64,000 nt of DNA, from the NCBI RefSeq assembly GCF_010093305.1, contig NZ_PDWS01000018.1, positions 1 through 64,000 of the forward strand, written 5' to 3'. This document shows positions 1-11,642 of this stretch, piece by piece. This DNA is from Pseudoxanthomonas sacheonensis (lineage in GTDB: Bacteria > Pseudomonadota > Gammaproteobacteria > Xanthomonadales > Xanthomonadaceae). The position numbers and the translations under genes were made by a program. The notes under the pieces were generated by a model that made no database searches, was not told the origin of the DNA, and saw only the letters and a list, made by a program, of their open reading frames with translations. Position 1 is the first letter of the stretch. Every line of letters begins with the position of its first letter.

Positions 1-1949
1 GCGGTCACCGGATCGTAGCCCACCTGGGCCGCCACGATGCCGTTGACCGTGATCTTCTTGACCTGCCCGATCACCCACTTGCCCGTGTTGTTCTCGTATT
101 CGTAGCTCTCCTGCTTGGAGAACCCCAACGAGCTGGATTTGGTCGCGCTGGTTTGCTGGGCGAAGGCGTCGAAACAACGGACGGCGCCGCAGAGATCGAC
201 AGACGAGGAAAAGGTCGCGCCGTCCTGGGAAGTGACGGCCTGCAGCAACGGGCGGTGATATTCGGCCGTGAATCCGTCGCCCCCGGGCTTCAGACTGCTG
301 CCATAGCTGGCCGGATAAGCCTGATCCGCCCCGCTCAAATCGTAGGCGTTCTCGACCGTGCGCAGCACGGCGGTCTCGCCGGTGCCCTCCTCCACCTTGA
401 GCAGCTTGCCTTCGTTGTAGCGATAACTATTGCCATAGGTGTAGCGGATCCATTTTCCATTCGGACCGGTCACCGTGGTTTTGCTGGAACCTGCGCAACT
501 GTCGGAGGTGCAGTGGGGCAATGCGCAGTTGTAGGCGCTCCAGTTGCACACCGGATACATGATCGTCGTACCCGGATACCGGTAGCTGCTGATGCCGGGA
601 ACGTAGGAATAATTCCACTCCGCAGCCGCCAACCCGGGTCCGGAAACTCCTTTTTTCAACAACGTGAAGCTGTTGTCCGAGTTGGCCCACAAATTGACGT
701 CGTCGGTCGTATTGTTGCCGCTGCCTGCTGGCGCGCCTACGGGATAGGTCGTCACGTGCCCGCAGCTGACAGGCACGTTGCTGCGCCCGTGTTTCTGGAT
801 GTTGACCGTAAAAGTGCCCAGCGCTCCGGCGGGATGCTTGAGGGTCCCCACGGGCGCCAGCGATGCATTCAAGGGCGTTTCCGGATTGGTGCAGGAACGC
901 AGGATCTCCCCCGTGGGCGCTTCGTTGTACTTTATCTCGGCGTTGGTGAACTCCGCGAAGCCGATGTTCCAGGCGCTCCCGTCCGGCAGAGTCACCGAAC
1001 TCAGCGTCTTCCGGCCGGAAGAAGTATCCGCATAGGCATAGTTCCAGGAGCGGGTGCCATCGCTCACGCTGGAAACAAAGCTGCCTGAATAGCTGACCGT
1101 CAGCTGCCGGCCATCGCTGGCCTGCATGCCCGTCATGCGCGCCGGCGCATTCCATGCGTTGGAATAGGTATAAGTCACCCAGTTGCCGAAGCGGTCCTCG
1201 ACACGGGTGGCGTAGAGCGCATTCTTTCGCCGCGTCTGGTAGGCATAGACCGGATGCCCGTTCACATCCAGCATATTTCCCTTCATATCGGGCATGCGGT
1301 ACTGCGCCATCCAGTTGAACCAGTACCGCGTGCCATCGGCAGTGGTGGCGATGAACCCCTCTCCGGTCGCATTGAGCACCGTTGAAAGACAGGCGATATG
1401 GGTCTTGCCGTCGCCCGTCACCCAGGGGTAAGGCCCGCCGGACGATGGCTTGGCGATGGCCGGCTTGGCGACCAGTACATCGCCTCCCGACCCGGGCAGA
1501 TCGAGATTCAAGCCTTGCCAATAGTCTTCGTAAGTGTAGCCGCCACCAGGAAGAGCGGGAGGCGCGGCCACGGAGCAACGACTGCCCGGCGAGGCGCCAG
1601 GCGCATTCCAGTCGGGGGTATGCACGGCGTTTATGTTCGGAAGATCGACAGACCAGTCGGCGAGCATGTCCTCGCTGTAATAGTCCTTGCGGTTCATGAC
1701 CGTGTACGAGCGCGAGAAAGCCAGCGGCAAGCTGTCGTTGCCCGGCAGGCTCACGTCGGTCGCAGAGAACGACAAGGCGCCATTGGACAGCTGGACTTGA
1801 TCGCCCGCGAAGTCGGGCCCAAGCGGAGAAACGGCCTGACTGGCCTTCAAGCGTTGGCCGGTCTCCTGCCACGCGAACTTCCCCGCCGTCTGCGCGCTGG
1901 CAGAAACATGAAAGAACAACAGCATTACCGCTACGGCTACGCGAACCAT
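1..1949 (-). CDS. RHS/YD-repeat-type secreted protein, N-terminal part, runs off left edge
   Basis: The frame is open without a stop for 649 codons from ATG 1949 to the window edge, so the C-terminus is missing. Residues 1-20 look like a signal peptide (MVRVAVAVMLLFFHVSASAQ). After it comes the N-terminal region typical of xanthomonad RHS repeat proteins: a segment rich in SRSYTV / DWSVDLP, then YRFGNW/YTYSNAW-like YD motifs and strand-rich Tyr/Gly/Asn sequence. RHS proteins form a large beta-shell that often encloses a variable C-terminal toxin or enzyme, but that part is outside the window, so no toxin claim can be made. The small secreted gene 51 bp upstream on the same strand may be cotranscribed. 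A competing frame inside the gene (427-1872) has Arg-rich, atypical composition and is a shadow. The RHS family call is fairly sure; function is unknown. Confidence 0.75.
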   Translation of the reverse strand, partial: MVRVAVAVMLLFFHVSASAQTAGKFAWQETGQRLKASQAVSPLGPDFAGDQVQLSNGALSFSATDVSLPGNDSLPLAFSRSYTVMNRKDYYSEDMLADWSVDLPNINAVHTPDWNAPGASPGSRCSVAAPPALPGGGYTYEDYWQGLNLDLPGSGGDVLVAKPAIAKPSSGGPYPWVTGDGKTHIACLSTVLNATGEGFIATTADGTRYWFNWMAQYRMPDMKGNMLDVNGHPVYAYQTRRKNALYATRVEDRFGNWVTYTYSNAWNAPARMTGMQASDGRQLTVSYSGSFVSSVSDGTRSWNYAYADTSSGRKTLSSVTLPDGSAWNIGFAEFTNAEIKYNEAPTGEILRSCTNPETPLNASLAPVGTLKHPAGALGTFTVNIQKHGRSNVPVSCGHVTTYPVGAPAGSGNNTTDDVNLWANSDNSFTLLKKGVSGPGLAAAEWNYSYVPGISSYRYPGTTIMYPVCNWSAYNCALPHCTSDSCAGSSKTTVTGPNGKWIRYTYGNSYRYNEGKLLKVEEGTGETAVLRTVENAYDLSGADQAYPASYGSSLKPGGDGFTAEYHRPLLQAVTSQDGATFSSSVDLCGAVRCFDAFAQQTSATKSSSLGFSKQESYEYENNTGKWVIGQVKKITVNGIVAAQVGYDPVT

Positions 1950-2689: not shown

Positions 2690-3862
2690 CTAAAGGACCG
2701 TCGGCGTAATCCGCAACACCTTCCCATCCACCGCATCCGTCAACACATAAATCGCCCCCTCCGGTCCCTGCCGCACATCGCGGATGCGCTGCTGCAACGC
2801 ACCGAGCAAACGCTCTTCGTGCGTAACTTTGTCGCCATCCAACTCCAAACGAATCAACTCACTCGACGCCAACGCACCAAGAAACAAATTGCCGCGCCAT
2901 TGCGGAAACAGATCGCCGGTATAGAACGCCATGCCGCTAAGTCCTGGCGATACCGCCCAGACATGGTGAGGCTGCTCCATACCCGGCGCCGAATTGCCGA
3001 CCGATCCGGGCACGGGCTCGCCGCTGTAATCCTTGCCATGAGTGATGACCGGCCAACCATAATTGCGTCCGGCTTGCGGAATATTGAGTTCGTCGCCGCC
3101 CATCGGGCCGTGTTCGCTGGTCCATATCTGCCGCGTCACCGGATGCAGCGCGGCGCCCTGCATGTTGCGGTGGCCGTACGACCAGATTTCCCCTCTTGCG
3201 CCGGTACGCTTGACGAAGGGATTGTCGTCGGGAATGCGACCGTCAGGCCAAATCCGCACCAGCTTGCCTTGCAGCTTGTCCAATTCCTGCGCGGCAGCGG
3301 CCGCCACGCGGTTGTCGCCCTGGGTGATGAACAGATGCCCGGCATCGTCGAAGACCAGGCGTGAACCCACATGAGTGCCGTGCGAAAGTTTCGGCTCCTG
3401 GCGATAGACCACCTTCGTATCCTGCAGCGCCCCGCCCTGCAGGCGCCCGCGCACCACCGAGGTGCCGGCCTTGTTGCCGCGCAGGGTGGGCTCGGCAAAG
3501 GACAGATAGACCAGGTTGTCGCTGGCGAAGGTCGGCGATACCGCCACATCCAGCAGACCGGCCTGGCCATCGACGAAGATCTTCGGCAAGCCCGTGATGG
3601 GCGCCGACACCTCGCCCGCTGCGGAAATACGGCGCAGGCGGCCAGGCCTTTCGGTGACCAGCATGTCGCCGCCCGGCAGGAAGGCCAGCCCCCACGGATG
3701 CTCCAGGCCGGCGACCAGCTCGGTCACCGCGTAAGACCCCTTCTCGGACGCGTGCACGGTGGGCGCTGCGTTCACCGCACGCGGCTCACTGGCCGGGGAA
3801 GCAGGCTCCTTGCCGCCGCAAGCCGACAGGCCGAGCAACAGGAGGACAGCCAGAATGCGCAT
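2690..3862 (-). CDS. PQQ-dependent aldose sugar dehydrogenase family lipoprotein
   Basis: 390 aa. The start at 3862 was chosen because it begins directly with a lipoprotein signal, MRILAVLLLLGLSAC with lipobox LSAC and lipidated Cys15; the longer frame to TTG 3979 adds 39 unlikely residues. The rest matches the soluble glucose/sorbosone dehydrogenase (YliI/Asd) beta-propeller: GLEHPWGLAFLPGGDMLVTERPG near the N-terminus, then LSHGTHVGSRLVFD, then GDNR, then SYGHRNMQGAALHP and a WTSEHGPMGGDELN segment, which supply PQQ and Ca2+ contacts in this family. It probably oxidises aldoses in the periplasm, passing electrons to the respiratory chain. The gene stands alone, with its own terminator, and diverges from the ACP operon. 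Confidence 0.85.
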   Translation of the reverse strand: MRILAVLLLLGLSACGGKEPASPASEPRAVNAAPTVHASEKGSYAVTELVAGLEHPWGLAFLPGGDMLVTERPGRLRRISAAGEVSAPITGLPKIFVDGQAGLLDVAVSPTFASDNLVYLSFAEPTLRGNKAGTSVVRGRLQGGALQDTKVVYRQEPKLSHGTHVGSRLVFDDAGHLFITQGDNRVAAAAAQELDKLQGKLVRIWPDGRIPDDNPFVKRTGARGEIWSYGHRNMQGAALHPVTRQIWTSEHGPMGGDELNIPQAGRNYGWPVITHGKDYSGEPVPGSVGNSAPGMEQPHHVWAVSPGLSGMAFYTGDLFPQWRGNLFLGALASSELIRLELDGDKVTHEERLLGALQQRIRDVRQGPEGAIYVLTDAVDGKVLRITPTVL

Positions 3863-4023
3863 GGCAACGACTCCGTGGAAATGCAGGGATGCCCGGATGT
3901 TAGCACCCGCTTCCGGTAGCGGGCGGGAGACGGCGGCGCCCGGCCTCCTTGCCCGCGTACTGGCCGGAATCAGGCCCAACCCGCGTTCATGTTGTTAGCA
4001 CCAAGGGAGATTGGGGGATCCGC

Positions 4024-4272
4024 ATGCAGCACAAGCAACAGATCAAGAAATTCATACTGGAGAACTTCCTGTTCTCGGACGACGAGTCCGCGATAGGGGA
4101 CCAGGACTCGTTGATACGTGGCGGCATCATCGATTCGACGGGCATCCACGAACTGATCTTCTTCCTGGAAGACGAGTTCAAACTGACCATCGTGCCGGAT
4201 GAAATGATCCCGGCGAATTTCGATTCGATCCAGACCGTCGACGAATTCGTCCGCCGCAAACTCGCCGTCTGA
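4024..4272 (+). CDS. acyl carrier protein
   Basis: 82 aa, acidic, with the phosphopantetheine attachment motif DST in GGIIDSTGIHEL (Ser38). Start ATG 4024 follows an AGGGAG ribosome binding site; the upstream in-frame extension is not protein-like. It is the first gene of a tight rightward run with the acyl-CoA ligase 14 bp downstream, the NadE-like gene and the GNAT gene, so it is probably a dedicated carrier loaded by that ligase rather than the fatty-acid AcpP. Similar ACP-ligase pairs occur in exosortase/polysaccharide loci. Confidence 0.85.
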   Translation: MQHKQQIKKFILENFLFSDDESAIGDQDSLIRGGIIDSTGIHELIFFLEDEFKLTIVPDEMIPANFDSIQTVDEFVRRKLAV

Positions 4273-4286
4273 CCAGCAGGCCGCAC

Positions 4287-5792
4287 GTGAACGGATTACC
4301 TGGCCGCGTCGCCCGCATCGCCCGGGAAACACCGCAGCGCACCGCTTTGGTGGATGGTGCGCGCATAATCGATTACGGCCAGTTCTGGCAGCAGGCGCAG
4401 GCTTTCGCTACTCGGCTGCACGAACAGGGCCTGGCGAAGGGCGATCGCCTGGCCTTGTTACTACCCAATCGCATCGAAGCCGCCGTCGCCTGCTATGGCG
4501 GCTGGCTGGCCGGTGCCGTGGTGGTGCCGTTGAACGCGCAGGCGCGCGAGCGTGATTTCGCGCCCTGGTTACAGCATTGCGGCGCCCGCCATGTGGTCTA
4601 CGAACAAGGCCACCGCGATGCGGAGCTGGCGCTGGAGCAGATCGGATACGGCGGTAGCCGCACCGTGCTGGCGGATGGGGAGCCCTTGCTTCCGTCGTCT
4701 GAAGAAACAGCCGCACCGGAAATCCAGATAGTCGAAGACAGCGACACCGCGCTGATTCTCTATACCTCCGGCACCACAGGCGCACCGAAAGGAGTGATGC
4801 TCAGCCACGCCAATCTCGCCGCCAATGCCGAAGCGGTGGTGTCCTACCTTGGACTGGGACCGGAAGACCGCGTGCTCAGCGTGCTTCCTTTCTATTACGC
4901 CTACGGCGCATCGGTCCTGCATACCCATCTCATCAGCGGCGCCTGCGTGGTGCTGGCGCCCAACCTGCTGTTTCCGCACTTGGTGCTGCAGTCGCTTTCG
5001 CAGGAACGCGCCACCGGATTTTCCGGCGTGCCTTCGACCTATGCGCTTCTGCTTCAGCACACCGCCTTGGGCGAATACGATTTCTCTTCGCTGCGCTACC
5101 TGACCCAGGCCGGCGGGGCGATGTCGCCGCAGCTGACCCAGCGCCTGCGCGCCGCCCTGCCCCATCCGCGCTTGTTCGTGATGTACGGGCAGACCGAGGC
5201 GACCTCGCGCATCAGCTGGTTGCCGCCGGAAAAACTGGACGAGAAACTGGGTTCGGTGGGCATTCCCGTGCAAGGCATGCGATGGAAGGTCCTGCGCGAA
5301 GACAGCAGTCCCGCCGACGTCGGTGAAAGCGGCGAAGTGTGGGTGCAAGGCCCCAACGTGATGCAGGGCTACTGGGACAACGCGGCCGCCACCGCCAGCG
5401 TGCTCGCCGAAGGCTGGCTGCGTACCGGCGATGTGGGTTACCTGGACGGCGACGGCTACCTGTTCCTGCAAGGACGCCGCAGCGACATGATCAAGACCGG
5501 CGCGCACCGCGTGCACCCTACCGACGTGGAGGAAGTGATCGCCGAAATTCCGGGCGTGACCGAAGTGGCCGTTGTCGGCGTGGAAGACGAAATCCTGGGC
5601 CAGGTGATCAAGGCTTTCGTCGTCGCCAGCGACCTGCCGCCGCGCGCGGAAGACCGCATCAAGGCGCATTGTCGCGCCCGCTTGGCCCCCTACAAGATCC
5701 CCAAACACGTCGCCTTCGTCGACGCCCTGCCGCGCACCGCTTCCGGCAAGGTCCGGCGCGTCCAACTGATGGAACCACAGAGCACAACATGA
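4287..5792 (+). CDS. AMP-forming acyl-CoA/acyl-ACP ligase
   Basis: 501 aa, GTG start. It belongs to the ANL adenylating superfamily: P-loop-like A3 motif YTSGTTGAPKG at 159-169, A5 motif YGQTEAT at 300-306, the hinge region GDVGYLDGDGYL, and the C-terminal catalytic Lys in ASGKVRR. It activates a carboxylic acid as acyl-AMP and transfers it to a thiol, here most likely the phosphopantetheine of the ACP encoded 14 bp upstream. The type resembles ligases associated with exosortase A/polysaccharide clusters (TIGR03098-like, from memory). Substrate is unknown. It overlaps the next gene by 4 bp (ATGA). Confidence 0.85.
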   Translation: MNGLPGRVARIARETPQRTALVDGARIIDYGQFWQQAQAFATRLHEQGLAKGDRLALLLPNRIEAAVACYGGWLAGAVVVPLNAQARERDFAPWLQHCGARHVVYEQGHRDAELALEQIGYGGSRTVLADGEPLLPSSEETAAPEIQIVEDSDTALILYTSGTTGAPKGVMLSHANLAANAEAVVSYLGLGPEDRVLSVLPFYYAYGASVLHTHLISGACVVLAPNLLFPHLVLQSLSQERATGFSGVPSTYALLLQHTALGEYDFSSLRYLTQAGGAMSPQLTQRLRAALPHPRLFVMYGQTEATSRISWLPPEKLDEKLGSVGIPVQGMRWKVLREDSSPADVGESGEVWVQGPNVMQGYWDNAAATASVLAEGWLRTGDVGYLDGDGYLFLQGRRSDMIKTGAHRVHPTDVEEVIAEIPGVTEVAVVGVEDEILGQVIKAFVVASDLPPRAEDRIKAHCRARLAPYKIPKHVAFVDALPRTASGKVRRVQLMEPQSTT

Positions 5793-6769
5793 CCACTCTC
5801 GACGCCAGCACCCTTGATATCGACTACGAAGCCGAAGCGGATCGCATCGCTGCGAAACTGCGCGAAGTCACCGCGCGGCAGCTGCACCGACGCGGCCTGG
5901 TGGTAGCCATTTCCGGCGGCATCGACAGTTCGGTCAGCGCCGCGCTGGCGGTGCGGGCGCTGGGCCCCGATCGCGTGTTCACCCTGATCCTGCCCGAACA
6001 GGACTCCTCCGACGACAGCGCCGCGCGTGCGCATATCCTGGCCAAGCATCTTGGCGTGCGCACCGAGACGGTGGACATCGCGCCCGCACTGGCCGCGATA
6101 GGCTGCTACACGGCGCGCGACGCAGCGGTGCGGCATGCCTTGCCGGAATACGGCGAAGGCTGGAAATTCAAGATCGTGATCGACGGCGGCACCGAAGGCC
6201 GCATCAACCGCTTCCGCCTGATCGCGCAATCTTCCGACGGTGCGATGGTCGAACGCGAGTTGCCGCTGCAGGATTACCTGACCATTGTGGCGGCCACCAA
6301 TTTCAAGCAGCGCATCCGCAAGACCCTGGAGTACTTCCATGCCGACCGCCTGAACTACGGCGTGGTGGGCACGCCCAACCGGGTGGAATACGACCAGGGT
6401 TTCTTCGTCAAGAACGGCGACGGTTCTGCCGACGTCAAGCCCATCGCGCATCTATACAAATCGCAGGTGTACGGCATGGCGCGTCACCTGGGCCTGCCGG
6501 AGCGCGTCTGCGCCGCCATTCCCACCACCGACACCTACAGCCTCAGCCAGGGCCAGGACGAATTCTATTTCGCCCTGCCCTACCAGCAGATGGACATCGC
6601 CCTGTGGGCGCTCAACCACGACGTGCCCGCGAGCGGCCTGGCTGCGGCGCTCAAGATCAGCGAAACGCAGGCGCAGGCGGTGTATGAAGACATCCGCAAC
6701 AAGCGCCGCACCACCCGTTACCTGCATCAGGCCCCGGTACTGATGAGTCCGGTGGTCGAACTCGACTGA
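5789..6769 (+). CDS. NAD synthase-family ATP pyrophosphatase (NadE-like) in a polysaccharide locus
   Basis: 326 aa. Start ATG 5789 overlaps the ligase stop by 4 bp; upstream sequence in this frame is a shadow of the ligase. The PP-loop motif SGGIDSS is at 42-48, and the NadE-specific block is present (LNYGVVGTPNRVEYDQ followed by GFFVKNGDGSADVKPI and LYKSQV). Ammonia-dependent NadE amidates deamido-NAD through an adenylate. This copy is longer than usual (about 270 aa), with an extra segment around residues 120-160 (FKIVIDGGTEGRINRF region). Placement between an acyl ligase and a GNAT suggests it amidates or adenylates a sugar or carrier-bound acid rather than making NAD, but this is inference; housekeeping NAD synthesis cannot be excluded. 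Confidence 0.75.
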   Translation: MTTLDASTLDIDYEAEADRIAAKLREVTARQLHRRGLVVAISGGIDSSVSAALAVRALGPDRVFTLILPEQDSSDDSAARAHILAKHLGVRTETVDIAPALAAIGCYTARDAAVRHALPEYGEGWKFKIVIDGGTEGRINRFRLIAQSSDGAMVERELPLQDYLTIVAATNFKQRIRKTLEYFHADRLNYGVVGTPNRVEYDQGFFVKNGDGSADVKPIAHLYKSQVYGMARHLGLPERVCAAIPTTDTYSLSQGQDEFYFALPYQQMDIALWALNHDVPASGLAAALKISETQAQAVYEDIRNKRRTTRYLHQAPVLMSPVVELD

Positions 6770-6774
6770 ACCCG

Positions 6775-7833
6775 ATGAACGATCTGTCGCCGCCGCCGCA
6801 GTACGTGACCCGCGACGGCGACGCCTTGCGCGACCGCGATACCGTGCTGTCGATCTGGCACGGCAACCTGGGGCAGGAAGATCGCATTGCGGCGAAGTAC
6901 GAATGGTTCTATCTGGGCTGTCCGTTCGGGCCGCCTGTATTGCAGCTGCTGCACTACACGCCCGATGCCACGGATATAGGCACCGCCTGCGCGGGCCGCC
7001 GCCGCATGCTGTGGCGTGGCGAGGAGATACGCGCCGGCGTGCTGGTGGATCTGACGGTGACGCCGGCGCATCGTTCGCTGGGTCCGGCCCTCATCCTGCA
7101 ACAGGGATTGATCCAGTCGGGCCGGCAGCAGCTGGATCTGCTGTACGGATTTCCCAATCCCAAGGCGGCCGCGGTTTTCAAGCGCATCGGCTACGAAAAA
7201 TTCACCGACATCGTGCGTCATGCGCACGTGCTGCGCCATGCGGGATATCTGCGCAACAAGCTTCCCGCTTGGCTCGCCGTGCCCTTGGGCGCACTGGCGG
7301 ATATGGTGTTCGCGGCAAAGGACAGGCTGGCGCGCGCTTTCGGGCCGCGGTTGGCTTATGCGTGGTCGGATCGTGCCGATCCGGCGATGGACCGATTGTG
7401 GCGGGATTCGGAAAAAGGCAGCGGGCTGCTGGCCATTCGCGACAGCAAACATTGCAAATGGCGGTTCGACGACTCCCCTTTGGTGCGCACGCGCTACCTG
7501 TTCCTCACTGCAGCGGGCGATGCGGGCATGCAAGCCTGGTTCGCCACGCAGGTGGAAGCGGGCACCCTGCATGTGCGCGACTTCTGGTCGGCCGCCGGCC
7601 GCGGCCGCATGGAACGTTCGCATCTGCTGGCATTGCTATGCGCCGCGCGCGAAGCCGGCCACGCATCGGTTTCCATGGAGATCGCAGCCGACGATGCGCG
7701 CCTGGAAAACTGGAAGCGTTGCGGCTTCGTCGAACGCAGCCGCCGGCCTGTGTTCGGCCGCTGGAGCCGTGACGAAACAGCGGATCCTCAGGCGATGGAT
7801 CTGTTCCTGACTTCCGCGGATGAAGACGAATAG
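6775..7833 (+). CDS. GNAT-type acyltransferase with two GNAT-like halves
   Basis: 352 aa, ATG start 5 bp after the NadE-like stop, so part of the same operon. The N-terminal half (about 10-180) looks like a GNAT fold: GVLVDLTVTPAHRSLGPALIL, then YGFPNPKAAAVFKRIGYEK, the usual beta4-alpha-beta signature. The C-terminal half has a second degenerate GNAT-like end (LENWKRCGFVERSRRPVFG). Such proteins N-acetylate amino sugars or transfer acyl groups during polysaccharide building. With the ACP and ligase upstream, acyl transfer from the ACP onto a sugar is plausible. Last gene of the rightward run; 64 bp separate it from the converging deacetylase gene. Confidence 0.65.
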   Translation: MNDLSPPPQYVTRDGDALRDRDTVLSIWHGNLGQEDRIAAKYEWFYLGCPFGPPVLQLLHYTPDATDIGTACAGRRRMLWRGEEIRAGVLVDLTVTPAHRSLGPALILQQGLIQSGRQQLDLLYGFPNPKAAAVFKRIGYEKFTDIVRHAHVLRHAGYLRNKLPAWLAVPLGALADMVFAAKDRLARAFGPRLAYAWSDRADPAMDRLWRDSEKGSGLLAIRDSKHCKWRFDDSPLVRTRYLFLTAAGDAGMQAWFATQVEAGTLHVRDFWSAAGRGRMERSHLLALLCAAREAGHASVSMEIAADDARLENWKRCGFVERSRRPVFGRWSRDETADPQAMDLFLTSADEDE

Positions 7834-7897: not shown

Positions 7898-8917
7898 TCA
7901 GGCCAACCGTCTGCTCTGCCTGCGGAACAGGTAAAGCGCCAGCCAATCGGGACGGAACCGCCCCTTCGCATCGACCACCGTATCGGTTTCGAAGCCCGTC
8001 CGTCCCAGCAACCAGCCAGGCTTTGGCGCCACCGGGTTGAGCACCGGCACGCTGGTGAATACGAGTTCGTAACCCGCCTGGCGGGCGCGCTCGGCGATTT
8101 CCGGCGTATGGGCGCCATGCGGAAACGACATGGATTCGGCGTTGGGAAGCGGCTGCCCGAGATGCCGCGCCAACTCTGTCCGCGCACCGCCCAGTTCGGC
8201 GTCCACATCGGCCGCGCGCGTCATAGGCGTGTGGGTCTTGCCATGCAGGCCCAGCGCTACTCCACCTGCCTGCAACTTGCGCAGTTCGCCCACATCGACC
8301 ATGTGCCGAAGGCCGTCATCGAGCGCCTGCAGATATGGGGCCAGTATTTCGTCCCTGCGCCCGGCATCTATTTTTTCGAGCCTGGCGATGGCGTTGCGCA
8401 GCGAGCCCATCGACTCGTCCTGCGGCGTCCACGCTTCGGCCAGCGCGGGCGCCATGGCGCGGGCCAGCTCATCCACCCGCAACAGGCCGCGGCGCCAGGC
8501 GGAAATCAGGCGCTCCTGAAAAAAGGGCTGCTGCGTTCCCACTGCGTCGGCCACCACGAACATCAATCCCGGCAATCCTGCGCGCTGCAGCTCCGGCAAT
8601 GCGTAGTCGGCATTGTCGGACCAGCCGTCGTCGAAGGTGATCAGCAACGCATGCGGCGGCAATGCCGCGCCGGTGCGGTGCGCTTCCAGCACCTGCTGCA
8701 GCGAGACGACGTTGTAATGGCGCTTGAAGAACGCCAGCGATTCGGAAAGATGGGCGATGGACAGCGTGTAGTCGGGATCGCAGGTACGCCAGCGCGGATC
8801 TTCCGGACTCAGCGTGCGGTGGAACATCACCACGGTTAGACTGCCGGCATTGCGCAGGCGGTGGTAGAGGCCCAGCAGACCGCTGGCGTAAAGCAGTTTT
8901 TTGGAGAAGTCCTTCAT
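7898..8917 (-). CDS. polysaccharide deacetylase (NodB homology) family protein
   Basis: 339 aa. Start at 8917 gives the natural MKDFSKKLLYASG beginning. NodB motifs seen: VVMFHR at the start of the barrel, TFDDGWSDN (motif 1, catalytic and metal Asp), HGKTHTPM (motif 2 position, metal His) and SFPHGAHTPEI (motif 3 position). No signal peptide; the N-terminal 25 residues are weakly hydrophobic. It probably removes N-acetyl groups from a lipid-linked or growing polysaccharide of the surrounding locus. Its start codon overlaps the divergent glycosyltransferase start, so its promoter must lie inside that gene; a TATAAT is present on this strand at 8943-8948. Confidence 0.8.
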   Translation of the reverse strand: MKDFSKKLLYASGLLGLYHRLRNAGSLTVVMFHRTLSPEDPRWRTCDPDYTLSIAHLSESLAFFKRHYNVVSLQQVLEAHRTGAALPPHALLITFDDGWSDNADYALPELQRAGLPGLMFVVADAVGTQQPFFQERLISAWRRGLLRVDELARAMAPALAEAWTPQDESMGSLRNAIARLEKIDAGRRDEILAPYLQALDDGLRHMVDVGELRKLQAGGVALGLHGKTHTPMTRAADVDAELGGARTELARHLGQPLPNAESMSFPHGAHTPEIAERARQAGYELVFTSVPVLNPVAPKPGWLLGRTGFETDTVVDAKGRFRPDWLALYLFRRQSRRLA

Positions 8918-9830
8918 GGCGCCAGCGATCGAAGTTTCCGCGATTATACCCACATACAACCGGCGCGAACTGGTGGTCCGCGCGATAGATTCGGTGCTCG
9001 CCCAGACCCGGCGCGTCGACGAAATCGTGGTGATCGACGACGGCTCCACCGACGGCACCGAGGCCTATTTGCGGGAACGTTACGGCGACCGTATCCGCTA
9101 TGCCTGGCAGCCCAACGCCGGCGTCTCCGCCGCGCGCAACCATGGCATGTCGATCGCACGGGGCCGTTACTTCGCCCTGCTGGACAGCGACGACGAATGG
9201 CTGCCGGAAAAGACCGCACGGCAAGTGGAGTGGATGGAAGCCCACCCTGATTTCGGCATGGTCATCTGCGACGTGGAACGCGTGGACGGCGATCACCGCC
9301 TGATCGACGTGTTCCGCCGGCGCGACACCATTCCCGAAGACGGCTGGGTCCTGCGCTGGATCATCCACAACCCCGCCCTGGCGCCCGCGTCGGCCATGCT
9401 GCGGCGCGAAGTGGTGGAAGACGTAGGCGGGTTCGACACCGGTCTGCGCACCGCCGAAGACATCGACTTCCATCTGCGCGTGGCGCAGCGCTGGCGGATC
9501 GGCGTGGTGGAAGCCTCGCTGGTCCGCGCCATGCGCGGGCACGACGGATTGTCGGCCGAATCCTCCACGTACGACGACTACGTGCGCGTTGTCGAGCGGG
9601 CCGTCGAGAACGCCAAGGGTATGGTCGACGATACCGAGCTGCGACGCGCGCTGGCCGCTACCTACGCACGCAACGCGCGCGGAATGCTGATCCGCAAACG
9701 CTGGCGCGATGGCTGGAACCTGGCGGCGCGGGCGTGGCGGTTGACGCCCGACCGGGCCCTGCGCGGAGATCTGCTGAAACTGGTCCCTTTCGGTTTGCGT
9801 CGCGCCGTGCGCAGCCTGCTTCCCGGTTGA
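8916..9830 (+). CDS. family 2 glycosyltransferase
   Basis: 304 aa. Start ATG 8916 is preceded by GGAGAAG at 8903-8909; a TTG five codons earlier is a less likely start. GT-A fold motifs: AIIPTYNRRE at residues 9-18, IDDGSTDGTEAY, and the DxD-type LLDSDDEWLP. It transfers a sugar from a nucleotide sugar to a polyprenyl-linked acceptor at the inner membrane. A C-terminal basic tail (RRAVRSLLPG) and no long TM segments suggest a peripheral membrane protein. It diverges from the deacetylase gene with overlapping start codons, and converges with the polyprenyl glycosylphosphotransferase gene. Confidence 0.85.
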   Translation: MAPAIEVSAIIPTYNRRELVVRAIDSVLAQTRRVDEIVVIDDGSTDGTEAYLRERYGDRIRYAWQPNAGVSAARNHGMSIARGRYFALLDSDDEWLPEKTARQVEWMEAHPDFGMVICDVERVDGDHRLIDVFRRRDTIPEDGWVLRWIIHNPALAPASAMLRREVVEDVGGFDTGLRTAEDIDFHLRVAQRWRIGVVEASLVRAMRGHDGLSAESSTYDDYVRVVERAVENAKGMVDDTELRRALAATYARNARGMLIRKRWRDGWNLAARAWRLTPDRALRGDLLKLVPFGLRRAVRSLLPG

Positions 9831-9891
9831 ATCGGGCGTTGCGGCTGTCGCCGCGCGGTTGTTGCCGCAGACCGGATTCCGCTGCCGCGGA

Positions 9892-11286
9892 TCAGCGCGC
9901 GCCCCGCCCGAACATCACCACTTCCACCGTCTGCAGCAGGATCATCAGGTCGAACACCAGGCCGTGGTTCTTCACGTAGAACAGATCGAACTTCAGTTTT
10001 TCCTCCGCGTCCTGCACGGACGCGCCGTAGGGATAGCGCAACTGCGCCCAGCCGGTGAGGCCCGGCTTCACGCAATGGCGCACGCCGTAGTAGCGGATTT
10101 CGTCCGACAGCAGATTGACGAAGTGCGGGCGCTCCGGCCGCGGCCCGACGAAGCTCATGTCGCCGCGCAGCACTGCGAACAACTGCGGCAGTTCGTCCAG
10201 GCGGGTCAGGCGGATGAATTTTCCTACCCGCGTGCTGCGGTCGTCGTCCTTGCTGGCCCAACGCGCCACGCCGTCTTTTTCCGCGTCCACGCGCATGCTG
10301 CGGAACTTGGTCAAAGTGAAGTTCTGGCCGCGCTGGCCCACCCGCGTCTGGCTGTAGAGGATCGGCCCTTCCGACTCCAGGCGTACCGCCAGGGCGACGA
10401 TCAGCATCACCGGCCATGCCATCAGCAGCAGAATGCTGGCGGCGATCAGATCGAAGAAGCGCTTGCTCAATCTGCGCGGCGTGGAATAGTCGAAGCCGCC
10501 GGAGAACACCAGCCAGGACGGGTCCACCACATTGAGCTGCACCATGCCGGCTTCGCGTTCGAAGAAGGTGGAGATGTCGATGACCGATATGCCGCGCTGC
10601 ACGCAGGTAAGCATGTCTTCCATGGGAAGACCGCCGCGGCGCTCGTCGGGAGCTATCACCAGCTCATCGATCTGCAGGCGCTCGGCCAGCTCGTGCAGGC
10701 CGCTTTCCGGCATTTCCAGCAGATCCTTGCTGACCAGAACCGCCTGTCCCGGCACCGGCACGAAGCCCACCACCACGAACGAACGGCGGTCTGACTGGCG
10801 ACGCATGCGGCTGTTGATCAGCTCCGCGTTCTTGCCCGCGCCGAACACCAGAATCCGCTGGCGCAGCGAATCGGCGCGGATTACGCGCACCGATATCACC
10901 CGCACCAGGATCACGCCCGCCAACCCCATCGCCAGCGACATGGCCAGCACGCCGCGGCCTATATAGGTAGGCGGAATCAGGTAGTACAGGACCACCAGAG
11001 CGACGCCGCCGAAAGCGAACGACAGCGTCGCCCGCAACAGGAAATCCAGCCGGTTGTGGCGGACGTGGACCTGATACATGCCGAAGGCGGCCATCGCTCC
11101 GGTGATGAACAGCGCCACCAGCACCGCGCGCAGCGGAGCCTGCTGGGAGAAAACGAAGTGGCTTTCCGGATCGTTGTGGAAACGGATCCAGGCCGCGAAC
11201 ATGACCGCCAGGACCAAAGCCAGCATTTCGGCGAGCCAGAGCAAGCGCACGGCGCGGGTCTTGCGGCTTGCGTTGGCGGACTTCAT
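9892..11286 (-). CDS. exopolysaccharide polyprenyl glycosylphosphotransferase (initiating sugar transferase)
   Basis: 464 aa. ATG 11286 has GGGAAG 8 nt upstream; the 9-codon longer start is weaker. N-terminal half: about four to five TM helices (LLWLAEMLALVLAVMFAAWI etc.) and a CoA-binding-like Rossmann segment (RILVFGAGKNAELI). C-terminal half: the bacterial sugar transferase domain with KRFFDLIAASILLL, FRSMRVDAE, RLTRLDELPQL and FVGPRPERP, the core catalytic region. It puts the first sugar-1-phosphate on undecaprenyl phosphate. The middle region (DERRGGLPMEDML ... DPSWLVFSGGF) resembles the subfamily tied to exosortase/PEP-CTERM loci (TIGR03013-like, from memory). Confidence 0.88.
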   Translation of the reverse strand: MKSANASRKTRAVRLLWLAEMLALVLAVMFAAWIRFHNDPESHFVFSQQAPLRAVLVALFITGAMAAFGMYQVHVRHNRLDFLLRATLSFAFGGVALVVLYYLIPPTYIGRGVLAMSLAMGLAGVILVRVISVRVIRADSLRQRILVFGAGKNAELINSRMRRQSDRRSFVVVGFVPVPGQAVLVSKDLLEMPESGLHELAERLQIDELVIAPDERRGGLPMEDMLTCVQRGISVIDISTFFEREAGMVQLNVVDPSWLVFSGGFDYSTPRRLSKRFFDLIAASILLLMAWPVMLIVALAVRLESEGPILYSQTRVGQRGQNFTLTKFRSMRVDAEKDGVARWASKDDDRSTRVGKFIRLTRLDELPQLFAVLRGDMSFVGPRPERPHFVNLLSDEIRYYGVRHCVKPGLTGWAQLRYPYGASVQDAEEKLKFDLFYVKNHGLVFDLMILLQTVEVVMFGRGAR

Positions 11287-11642
11287 CGGTCGCTTCCCAC
11301 GACGGACGCGCACAGTCCGTACTGACGGCGGTGCAGAAGTTTTCCGGCGGGAGCGTCGCCGCTTCCACGCAATGTCATCGAACCAGGCATCTGTTCCCCC
11401 GTGGCGTGCCGTTCAGCGCTGGCGCTCCTTTGTTCCGGCCTCCCGCCAGGGGCCGCCGATCCAGCGCTCACCCACATGGCGTGGGCTACCCAGTACAACG
11501 CCACAGGGGTGACGATCCGGCCAAGGCCGGAATCCTTGTTCTCCTCTCCGGCAACGCAGGCGGCCCAGAAACGATTCCAGCCGCCTATGCGGCGGCTGGT
11601 CGTCAGCGTATCAACGGAAGGGCCGGTCCACGCCCATGCAGG
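11287..11642. other. intergenic region with one strong hairpin; no gene seen
   Basis: 356 bp between two leftward genes. A perfect 9-bp inverted repeat, CCAGCCGCC/GGCGGCTGG with a 5-nt loop, lies at 11577-11599, 44 bp past the beta-helix gene stop. It lacks a T run but may end that transcript. The rest should hold the promoter of the sugar transferase gene. A rightward open frame at 11401-11667 has no ribosome binding site and odd composition. Confidence 0.5.

What the first reader, a model, noticed from the sequence alone, without database searches (positions are those of the whole stretch)
4024..7833. ACP, acyl ligase, NadE-like and GNAT module in a polysaccharide locus
Four genes are packed tightly (14-bp gap, 4-bp overlap, 5-bp gap) beside glycosyltransferase, deacetylase and initiating transferase genes. 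The combination suggests a pathway that loads an acid on a carrier, converts it (amidation or adenylation by the PP-loop protein), and transfers it to a sugar by the GNAT. I do not know a characterised pathway with this exact set.
Basis: partly seen in the sequence, partly recalled or inferred. Interest (0 to 1): 0.62.

Follow-up and report, generated by a model that had tools for sequence, protein, structure and literature searches.

The report
NadE-like carrier-protein amide-forming gene module
Four neighbouring bacterial genes belong to a widely conserved, uncharacterised enzyme set that probably loads a small acid on a carrier protein, turns it into an amide and attaches it to a sugar of a surface polysaccharide; one member is routinely labelled as an enzyme that makes NAD, which it probably does not.

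Summary
In detail: ACP (4024-4272), ligase (4287-5792), NadE-like (5789-6769) and GNAT (6775-7833), with the stated gaps. The set is not unique to this genome. Among 109 distinct NadE-like loci an ACP lies within 4 kb in 97, a ligase within 4.5 kb in 96 and an asparagine-synthase homologue (AsnB) within 6.5 kb in 85; 20 control neighbourhoods of ordinary NAD synthetases have none. In 149 family genomes the GNAT occurs in 18, all within the 19 with the NadE-like gene. All 28 genomes examined (27 with the intact gene) have another NAD synthetase. Sinorhizobium keeps asnB-acp-ligase-nadE alone; its ACP and ligase were studied, but no product was found in the passages read. Best reading: acid loaded on the ACP, amidated by AsnB and/or the NadE-like PP-loop enzyme, and (here) passed to an amino sugar by a tandem GNAT. 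Substrate, order and product are inferred. A new variant of known carrier-protein/amidotransferase tailoring; the family name 'NAD(+) synthase' is probably wrong.

The parts
4024..4272 (+). free-standing acyl/aminoacyl carrier protein, 82 aa, phosphopantetheine site IIDSTG
   Evidence: no Pfam hit, NCBIfam hits all below cut-off; best solved relatives are peptidyl carrier proteins 2my5, PigG and PltL; the site Ser is kept in 107 of 108 rows
4287..5792 (+). adenylate-forming ligase (501 aa, GTG start), class I pocket motifs FYYAYG / TQAGGAM / YGQTEAT
   Evidence: PF00501 1.2e-87 and PF13193; TIGR03098 356.9 bits, below its cut-off of 592; motif classes read by eye
5789..6769 (+). NadE-like PP-loop ATP pyrophosphatase (326 aa), NF002048/PRK00876 family; proposed carrier-linked amide synthetase
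   Evidence: one clade apart from 27 NAD synthetase sequences
6107..6268 (+). family-specific insert of the NadE-like protein (residues about 107-160, limits set by eye), absent from the NAD synthetases aligned
   Evidence: alignment with 13 NAD synthetases; strands 126-132, 141-147 and 153-158 in the model; residues 95% or more conserved in 58 sequences: Y107 R110 D111 P119 Y121 W125 K128 N140 G151
6775..7833 (+). tandem GNAT acyltransferase, 352 aa, conserved C-terminus LTSADEDE
   Evidence: no family hit; alignment; model pLDDT 92.6; best solved folds 2hv2 (Z 21.8), Eis and N-myristoyltransferase; co-occurrence with the NadE-like gene
7898..8914 (-). polysaccharide deacetylase (start uncertain; the ORF runs to 9058)
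   Evidence: PF01522 6.9e-13; cluster found in 35 of 109 loci
8901..9830 (+). family 2 glycosyltransferase
   Evidence: PF00535 2.4e-35; cluster found in 31 of 109 loci
9892..11301 (-). initiating polyprenyl glycosylphosphotransferase, TIGR03013 (XrtA-type)
   Evidence: 541.5 bits over a cut-off of 393.35
2690..3979 (-). GSDH-type dehydrogenase-like protein, divergent from the module; conserved neighbour, relation to the pathway unknown
   Evidence: PF07995 6.2e-133; its cluster found in 27 of 109 loci
3..1949 (-). reading frame cut by the contig end, probably part of an RHS-like element that separates the module from its AsnB and methyltransferase genes
   Evidence: the window starts at base 1 of contig C9; only a sub-cut-off DUF6531 hit; its homologue in CF125 (783 bits) lies directly beside an RHS-repeat frame, to which the RHS frame near the end of contig C5 is similar

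Best explanation
A carrier-protein tailoring module. Step 1 (shown only in part for the Sinorhizobium relative, inferred here): the ligase adenylates a small carboxylic or amino acid and loads it on the phosphopantetheine of the ACP. Step 2 (inferred): the AsnB homologue (glutamine-fed) and the NadE-like enzyme (fed by free or channelled ammonia) each adenylate a carboxylate of the loaded acid, or of a precursor of it, and convert it to an amide; the NadE-like enzyme has kept the ATP/ammonia core of NAD synthetase but carries an insert of its own that may shape the substrate site. A methyltransferase may modify the product. Step 3 (inferred, this locus and relatives): the tandem GNAT moves the amidated acyl group from the ACP to an amino group of a polysaccharide precursor, perhaps one exposed by the neighbouring deacetylase.
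For: Conserved set: in 109 distinct loci an ACP within 4 kb in 97, a ligase within 4.5 kb in 96, AsnB within 6.5 kb in 85; all three in 68 of the 89 loci with 6 kb or more upstream. Control: 0 of 20 ordinary NadE neighbourhoods have ACP, ligase, AsnB or GNAT. asnB-acp-ligase-nadE runs on plasmids of Sinorhizobium, Mesorhizobium, Nitratireductor and Shinella. Another NAD synthetase in 28 of 28 genomes examined. GNAT in 18 of 149 family genomes, all among the 19 with the NadE-like gene. Catalytic core kept (SGGxDS and 20 further shared positions) with an insert and five family-wide replacements. AsnB: SGGLDSS in 76 of 87 sequences, an N-terminal Cys-Gly in at least 81 (the 87 include one unrelated AsnB of this genome). 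ACP nearest, among solved proteins, to peptidyl carriers. Precedents: SMb20650 acylates SMb20651 in E. coli (passage, PMC7232532); a discrete ACP plus AsnB homologue proposed to make a malonamyl thioester (passage, PMC7756379); BtrK acts on glutamyl-S-BtrI (passage, PMC7857480).
Against: No substrate or product is known to me for any member. By HMM score the NadE-like protein passes the NAD synthetase model TIGR00552 (141.5 bits with its neighbours in the frame, cut-off 63.65). The ligases fall by eye in two pocket classes, so the loaded acid may differ between loci although AsnB and the NadE-like protein stay. Within the set distances ligase is missing in 9 of 89 loci, ACP in 6 and AsnB in 9; some of these lie just beyond the limits or farther off, the rest were not followed. 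The GNAT is not seen beside the rhizobial operons. No fusions of ACP with a partner were found. Nothing shows that NadE-like or AsnB touches an ACP-bound substrate rather than a free acid. The insert is less conserved than the core (0.67 against 0.79).
Confidence: 0.5

Rival explanations
1. The NadE-like protein is not an ammonia-dependent amide synthetase but an amide ligase or release enzyme: it adenylates a carboxylate and joins it to an amine other than ammonia (an amino sugar or amino acid), while AsnB alone makes the primary amide.
For: AsnB already supplies an amide-forming activity, so a second identical chemistry seems redundant; the insert sits just before the helix that carries the conserved N..QR.R motif; AsnB-like enzymes may use other nitrogen donors (the best solved hit of the own AsnB is 7ylz, named hydroxyamidotransferase).
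Against: Core positions of NAD synthetase are kept, including GT.N..E, the GDG..D loop and a P..D....Q.DE-like segment; in loci with a GNAT the joining step already has a candidate enzyme.
Confidence: 0.2
2. The gene is a second NAD synthetase (spare or local NAD supply), and its place beside ACP and ligase is incidental or supports a redox step.
For: NF002048 (468.6 bits) and TIGR00552 both call it NAD(+) synthase; best fold matches are NAD/NMN synthetases (3fiu Z 27.1, 2e18 Z 26.9); one of 14 control genomes also passes the NF002048 cut-off, which one is not told.
Against: 28 of 28 genomes examined have another NAD synthetase; the neighbourhood recurs from Pseudomonadota to MAGs labelled Myxococcota and Krumholzibacteriia, unlike that of ordinary NadE (0 of 20); an insert and family-wide replacements such as V207 where 13 of 13 NAD synthetases have Thr; a separate clade on a long branch, support 0.88.
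Confidence: 0.12
3. A fatty-acyl module: the ligase loads a fatty acid on the ACP for lipid or polysaccharide acylation, and the nitrogen enzymes make an amide head group (a lipid amide or lipo-amino acid).
For: The best NCBIfam hits of the ligase are long-chain fatty-acid and exosortase-type ligase models, all below cut-off; SMb20650 is described as a predicted long-chain acyl-CoA ligase and is grouped with fatty-acid activation genes that fall under Myxococcus predation (passage, PMC10315480); the GNAT fold resembles N-myristoyltransferase; a beta-ketoacyl-ACP synthase III cluster in 7 of 109 loci.
Against: SMb20650 cannot replace FadD in S. meliloti or E. coli (passages, PMC7232532); the ACP is nearest, among solved proteins, to peptidyl carriers; two genomes (G003, G133) have a TIGR03099 decarboxylase over cut-off about 2.6 kb from the NadE-like gene, which hints at amino acids (kinship of TIGR03099 to BtrK is recalled).
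Confidence: 0.15

Closest known systems
Sinorhizobium meliloti pSymB operon asnB - SMb20651 (ACP) - SMb20650 (ligase) - nadE
   Same: Same four enzyme families, head to tail, on S. meliloti pSymB (L174; its NadE scores 531.9 with NF002048). ACP and ligase are cotranscribed, and the ligase acylates the ACP in E. coli (passage in PMC7232532).
   Different: No GNAT or polysaccharide genes seen beside it; class II ligase motifs against class I here; NadE about 54% identical. That L174 is the SMb20651 locus is inferred from pSymB, the ACP-ligase pair and one ACP place per record; the original paper (Ramos-Vega 2009) was not held.
XrtA/PEP-CTERM exopolysaccharide loci: TIGR03098 ligase, TIGR03108 amidotransferase, ACP, TIGR03099 decarboxylase
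   Same: ACP, ligase and AsnB homologue beside polysaccharide genes; the window's initiating transferase is a TIGR03013 member; in G224 and G161 an exosortase lies on the same contig, about 13 kb from the NadE-like gene.
   Different: Window ligase below the TIGR03098 cut-off; own AsnB 453.1 against 816.9 for TIGR03108; no exosortase match in this genome; no TIGR03099 over cut-off here. That an XrtA locus also carries an ACP is recalled.
Predicted peptide-synthesis operons with methionyl-tRNA-synthetase paralogues (PMC2922099)
   Same: Passages list acyl-CoA ligase, ACP, GNAT and a PP-loop ATPase close to asparagine synthetase in one kind of operon.
   Different: Built around a tRNA-synthetase paralogue and cupin; a search of that text for 'NadE' and 'NAD synthetase' gave 0.
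Glutarimide polyketide starter set (ACP plus asparagine synthetase homologue, proposed malonamyl thioester)
   Same: Discrete ACP whose acyl group is proposed to be amidated by an AsnB homologue (passage, PMC7756379).
   Different: Loaded by an acyltransferase, feeds a polyketide synthase; no NadE-like enzyme in the passages read.
Butirosin side-chain pathway (BtrI carrier, BtrJ ligase, BtrK decarboxylase, BtrH transfer)
   Same: Amino acid carried on a small ACP and altered there (BtrK on glutamyl-S-BtrI; passage, PMC7857480), then moved to an amino sugar (the transfer is recalled).
   Different: Decarboxylation instead of amidation; no AsnB or NadE-like enzyme (recalled).
NH3-dependent NAD synthetase (NadE) and NMN synthetase of Francisella
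   Same: PP-loop ATP pyrophosphatase fold; 3fiu Z 27.1, rmsd 3.0, 236 aligned, 26% identity.
   Different: About 50-residue insert, family-wide core replacements, different gene context, presence beside another NAD synthetase.

Membership tests
NAD(+) synthase (NadE; TIGR00552 / NF002048) | score over the curated model cut-off | tested here: met
   NF002048 468.6 against 313; TIGR00552 141.5 with its neighbours in the frame against 63.65
NAD(+) synthase (NadE; TIGR00552 / NF002048) | PP-loop SGG.DS and ATP pyrophosphatase core | tested here: met
   25 positions shared with 13 NAD synthetases, including S42 G43 G44 D46 S47; fold
NAD(+) synthase (NadE; TIGR00552 / NF002048) | provides the cell's NAD (no other NAD synthetase in the genome) | tested here: not met
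   another NAD synthetase over cut-off in 28 of 28 genomes, 27 with the intact NadE-like gene and G284 with a truncated one; two in the own genome
NAD(+) synthase (NadE; TIGR00552 / NF002048) | amidates deamido-NAD | not testable with these tools
   needs enzyme assay
XrtA/PEP-CTERM EPS module | exosortase (PF09721) in the genome | tested here: not met
   0 matches in the own genome; 5 of 28 genomes examined have one
XrtA/PEP-CTERM EPS module | TIGR03098 ligase over cut-off | tested here: not met
   window 356.9 against 592.35; class II examples L174 457.7 and L068 483.4, also below
XrtA/PEP-CTERM EPS module | TIGR03108 amidotransferase over cut-off | tested here: not met
   own AsnB 453.1 against 816.9; sister-species AsnB 431.5
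XrtA/PEP-CTERM EPS module | TIGR03099 decarboxylase over cut-off | tested here: not met
   own best 244.4 against 478.45; over the cut-off in 4 of 28 genomes
XrtA/PEP-CTERM EPS module | TIGR03013 initiating transferase | tested here: met
   541.5 against 393.35
acyl/peptidyl carrier protein | phosphopantetheine Ser in a DS motif | tested here: met
   IIDSTG; Ser in 107 of 108 rows
acyl/peptidyl carrier protein | Pfam carrier-domain hit | tested here: not met
   0 Pfam families at E 0.01; weak NCBIfam and solved-structure hits to carriers
GNAT acyltransferase | GNAT fold | tested here: met
   tandem GNAT model, pLDDT 92.6; 2hv2 Z 21.8, rmsd 3.2, 292 aligned
Sinorhizobium-type asnB-acp-ligase-nadE operon | all four families in one locus | tested here: inconclusive
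   ACP, ligase and NadE-like in the window, AsnB on contig C5 of the same assembly; contiguous in sister strain CF125; contiguity in this strain itself is inferred across a contig break
asparagine synthase (TIGR01536) | score over the curated cut-off (own AsnB) | tested here: met
   503.2 against 267.1
N-acetylglutaminylglutamine amide (NAGGN) trio | TIGR03104 amidotransferase over cut-off | tested here: not met
   own AsnB 367.1 against 570.1; sister-species AsnB 363.8

The most novel reading that the evidence does not exclude
Two amide-forming ATP pyrophosphatases of different families act in sequence on one carrier-bound acid: AsnB turns the carboxyl into an amide, and the NadE-like enzyme adenylates that amide and adds a second ammonia, giving an amidine (or, on a second carboxyl, a diamide) that the GNAT attaches to an amino sugar. 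Hundreds of genes now named NAD(+) synthase would then be carrier-protein amide/amidine synthetases.
Probability: 0.1. Interest if true: 0.82.

Novelty: new variant of a known kind. Interest (0 to 1): 0.6.

Why it matters
It gives a testable function to a family (NF002048/PRK00876; 555 stretches encoding relatives in one capped genome scan) that databases call NAD(+) synthase, and it links an orphan Sinorhizobium operon with polysaccharide loci of other bacteria. If right, it adds ammonia-dependent amide formation by a NadE-type enzyme to carrier-protein chemistry and predicts an unrecognised amidated acyl group on bacterial surface polysaccharides.

Tried and rejected
Literature searches for the gene set: (26 papers, 20 listed; 6; 0; 17; 1) were judged from their listings only and showed nothing on this combination; others (7 papers; 2) found the Sinorhizobium ACP and ligase. 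'No product in print' means only these searches and the passages read; most subscription papers are not held.

Idea that the NadE-like enzyme simply takes the place of the XrtA decarboxylase (TIGR03099): not upheld as a rule; the decarboxylase is over its cut-off in 4 of 28 genomes, and in two of these (G003, G133) about 2.6 kb from the NadE-like gene, so both can coexist. Idea that class II ligases are true XrtA ligases: the two tested score below the TIGR03098 cut-off.

Gene fusions joining ACP to AsnB, ligase or NadE-like: none found among the loci scanned. Locus tags in NC_003078.1: the record carries no features. The Phe that stacks on nicotinate in some NAD synthetases (recalled) was dropped as a marker because it is not shared among those aligned. 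Which of the 14 control genomes passes the NF002048 cut-off was not resolved; it could be a genome where this family is the only NAD synthetase. Five duplicate loci were dropped before counting. The NadE-like model was compared only by the VIA-align second look. The class I/class II ligase split was read by eye from three motif windows, not tested on a tree. In the tree one own NAD synthetase gene is present twice (L001, L206), and a check with the root on the other side failed with an error.

Full report
WHAT IS THERE. The ligase is an AMP-binding enzyme. The NadE-like protein scores 468.6 bits with NF002048 (cut-off 313), a family named NAD(+) synthase. The ACP has no Pfam hit but has the phosphopantetheine motif IIDSTG, and its nearest solved relatives are peptidyl carriers (2my5, PigG, PltL), with weaker hits to an aminoacyl and a D-alanyl carrier. 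The GNAT has no Pfam or NCBIfam hit; an AlphaFold model (pLDDT 92.6) shows a tandem GNAT like 2hv2, Eis and N-myristoyltransferase. Beside them lie a deacetylase, a GT2 and an initiating transferase of family TIGR03013.

THE MODULE IS CONSERVED. NF002048 over its cut-off occurs in 19 of 149 genomes of the family and 9 of 274 of the class, the own genome included in both. 116 plasmid records carry one, 76 of them Sinorhizobium. I compared the window, 27 loci and 6 plasmid loci; after dropping 5 duplicates, 109 remain. Measured between gene midpoints, an ACP lies within 4 kb of the NadE-like gene in 97, a ligase within 4.5 kb in 96, AsnB within 6.5 kb in 85 and a GNAT-like hit within 2.5 kb in 52. 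Of the 89 loci with at least 6 kb upstream the numbers are 83, 80, 80 and 44, and 68 have ACP, ligase and AsnB together. Several of the misses lie just beyond these limits, and one of them, L093, is a truncated NadE-like copy. As a control, 20 neighbourhoods (one of them only 9.5 kb long) of ordinary NAD synthetases in 19 of the same genomes show none of the four partners at E 0.001.

THE MISSING PARTNER. AsnB is not in the window. The own genome has it at C5:100681-102591; it is a TIGR01536 asparagine synthase by score, below the cut-offs of TIGR03108 and TIGR03104. It is followed by a methyltransferase and an RHS-repeat frame near the end of contig C5. The window starts at base 1 of contig C9, inside a frame with only a sub-cut-off DUF6531 hit. 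In Pseudoxanthomonas sp. CF125 one contig holds the order AsnB, methyltransferase, two reverse frames, GSDH (reverse), ACP, ligase, NadE-like, GNAT, deacetylase (reverse); the RHS frame near the end of C5 matches the first of the two frames (which has an RHS repeat) and the frame at the start of the window the second. AsnB and ACP are about 11.5 kb apart there. So AsnB and the methyltransferase very probably belong to this locus, but the join in this strain is inferred. In two other genomes without AsnB nearby (G003, G133) it lies on the same contig about 15 kb away.

NOT AN NAD GENE IN ANY ORDINARY SENSE. All 28 genomes examined (27 with an intact NadE-like gene, G284 with a truncated one) have another NAD synthetase over the TIGR00552 cut-off: 27 a near full-length match of 185 to 215 bits, one (G219) a partial match of 67.4 bits in a long frame. 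The NadE-like proteins form one clade apart from NAD synthetases on a long branch, support 0.88 (29 against 27 sequences). They share 25 core positions with 13 NAD synthetases but have an insert at about residues 107-160 that those lack, and five positions fixed to another residue, for example V207 where 13 of 13 have Thr. The model (pLDDT 88.5) matches NAD/NMN synthetases best (3fiu Z 27.1, rmsd 3.0, 236 aligned). Against this reading, plain HMM scoring does call it NAD synthase, and one of 14 control genomes also passes the NF002048 cut-off; which one is not told.

THE GNAT BELONGS TO IT IN THIS FAMILY. A profile of the GNAT (A4) finds it in 18 of 149 family genomes at E 1e-20 (9 of 54 genera). 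All 18 are among the 19 with the NadE-like gene; the exception is G065. The chance figure is 2.7e-22 if genomes are taken as independent, which they are not. In G003 and G133 the GNAT is about 32 and 25 kb from the NadE-like gene, yet still present.

CONTEXTS. The module occurs (a) in polysaccharide loci like this one; (b) among genes that I recall as typical of XrtA/PEP-CTERM loci, such as a DUF3473 deacetylase, a GNVR chain-length protein and a FemAB-like protein (Pfam names, order), with an exosortase about 13 kb away on the same contig in G224 and G161, although this genome and 22 others of the 28 have no exosortase match; and (c) as an asnB-acp-ligase-nadE run away from polysaccharide genes in Sinorhizobium and Mesorhizobium, and, preceded by a protein of about 370 residues without Pfam hit, in Nitratireductor and Shinella. 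Azospirillum ramasamyi has ACP, ligase, asnB, nadE and GNAT after glycosyltransferases and a deacetylase. A PrmC/HemK-like methyltransferase cluster is found in 14 of 109 loci, in 11 of them directly before the NadE-like gene; PrmC itself methylates an amide nitrogen (recalled), which would suit an amide product. Ligases fall by eye into two pocket classes: class I (FYYAYG, TQAGGAM, YGQTEAT; this window) and class II (FDYG, TNTAAALP, YGLTECKR; Sinorhizobium, Rhodanobacter and the second ligases in L068, L110 and L120); L085 has one of each in a single run. Two class II ligases score closer to TIGR03098 than the window's (458 and 483 against 357) but still below its cut-off of 592. Class II often has an Asp where peptide-synthetase domains bind the amino group (recalled), so the loaded acid may differ between classes.

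MECHANISM. The best reading is that the ligase loads an acid on the ACP, AsnB and/or the NadE-like enzyme make it an amide, and the GNAT hands it to an amino sugar. Shown elsewhere: SMb20650 is cotranscribed with SMb20651 and acylates it in E. coli, and it cannot replace FadD (passages of PMC7232532; the acyl group is not named there). PMC5686131 says the function of SMb20651 needs investigation (passage). The source paper, Ramos-Vega 2009, was not held; that its operon includes a putative asparagine synthetase and NAD synthetase is my recollection, and agrees. Proposed elsewhere: an ACP-bound malonyl group is amidated by an AsnB homologue in glutarimide pathways (passage of PMC7756379). PMC2922099 predicts operons with acyl-CoA ligase, ACP, GNAT and an asparagine-synthetase-like PP-loop enzyme around a tRNA-synthetase paralogue (passages). 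Not shown in anything I read: the substrate, the order of the two nitrogen enzymes, their action on ACP-bound acids in this module, and transfer to sugar.

VERDICT. It is a new variant of carrier-protein tailoring with an unusual pair of amide-forming enzymes. The most practical claim is that NF002048 is probably misnamed.

Noticed in passing
L174 (Sinorhizobium meliloti R14, CP130053.1), ACP 10133-10399 and AsnB 8170-10107: This strain has Pro in place of the phosphopantetheine Ser of the ACP and Leu in place of a Ser in the PP-loop of AsnB, while strain 1021 (L176) has the usual residues in both. Two catalytic-site changes in one operon suggest loss of the pathway, or sequencing error.
   Followed up: partly
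window 3-1949 (-) and L186:13092-14426 (-): An RHS-like element sits between methyltransferase and GSDH in CF125 and probably in this strain, whereas other Pseudoxanthomonas loci show AsnB, methyltransferase, GSDH and ACP without it. The contig break of the assembly falls in it.
   Followed up: partly
window 9892-11301 (-): An XrtA-type initiating transferase (TIGR03013 over cut-off) in a genome without any exosortase match.
   Followed up: partly
L093 (G284:C8), about 9510-10025: A truncated NadE-like gene (172-residue open frame, a stop inside the match) in a genome that has an exosortase.
   Followed up: no
window 2690-3979 (-): A glucose/sorbosone dehydrogenase-like gene is a conserved divergent neighbour of the ACP; its cluster is in 27 of 109 loci. 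Its link to the pathway is unknown.
   Followed up: no
L175:5083-6195 and L179:3134-4243: In Nitratireductor and Shinella a protein of about 370 residues without Pfam hit lies directly upstream of asnB; it might be another kind of acyltransferase.
   Followed up: no
L179:9018-10411: In Shinella sp. PSBB067 the operon is followed, on the other strand, by RidA-family and agmatinase genes.
   Followed up: no
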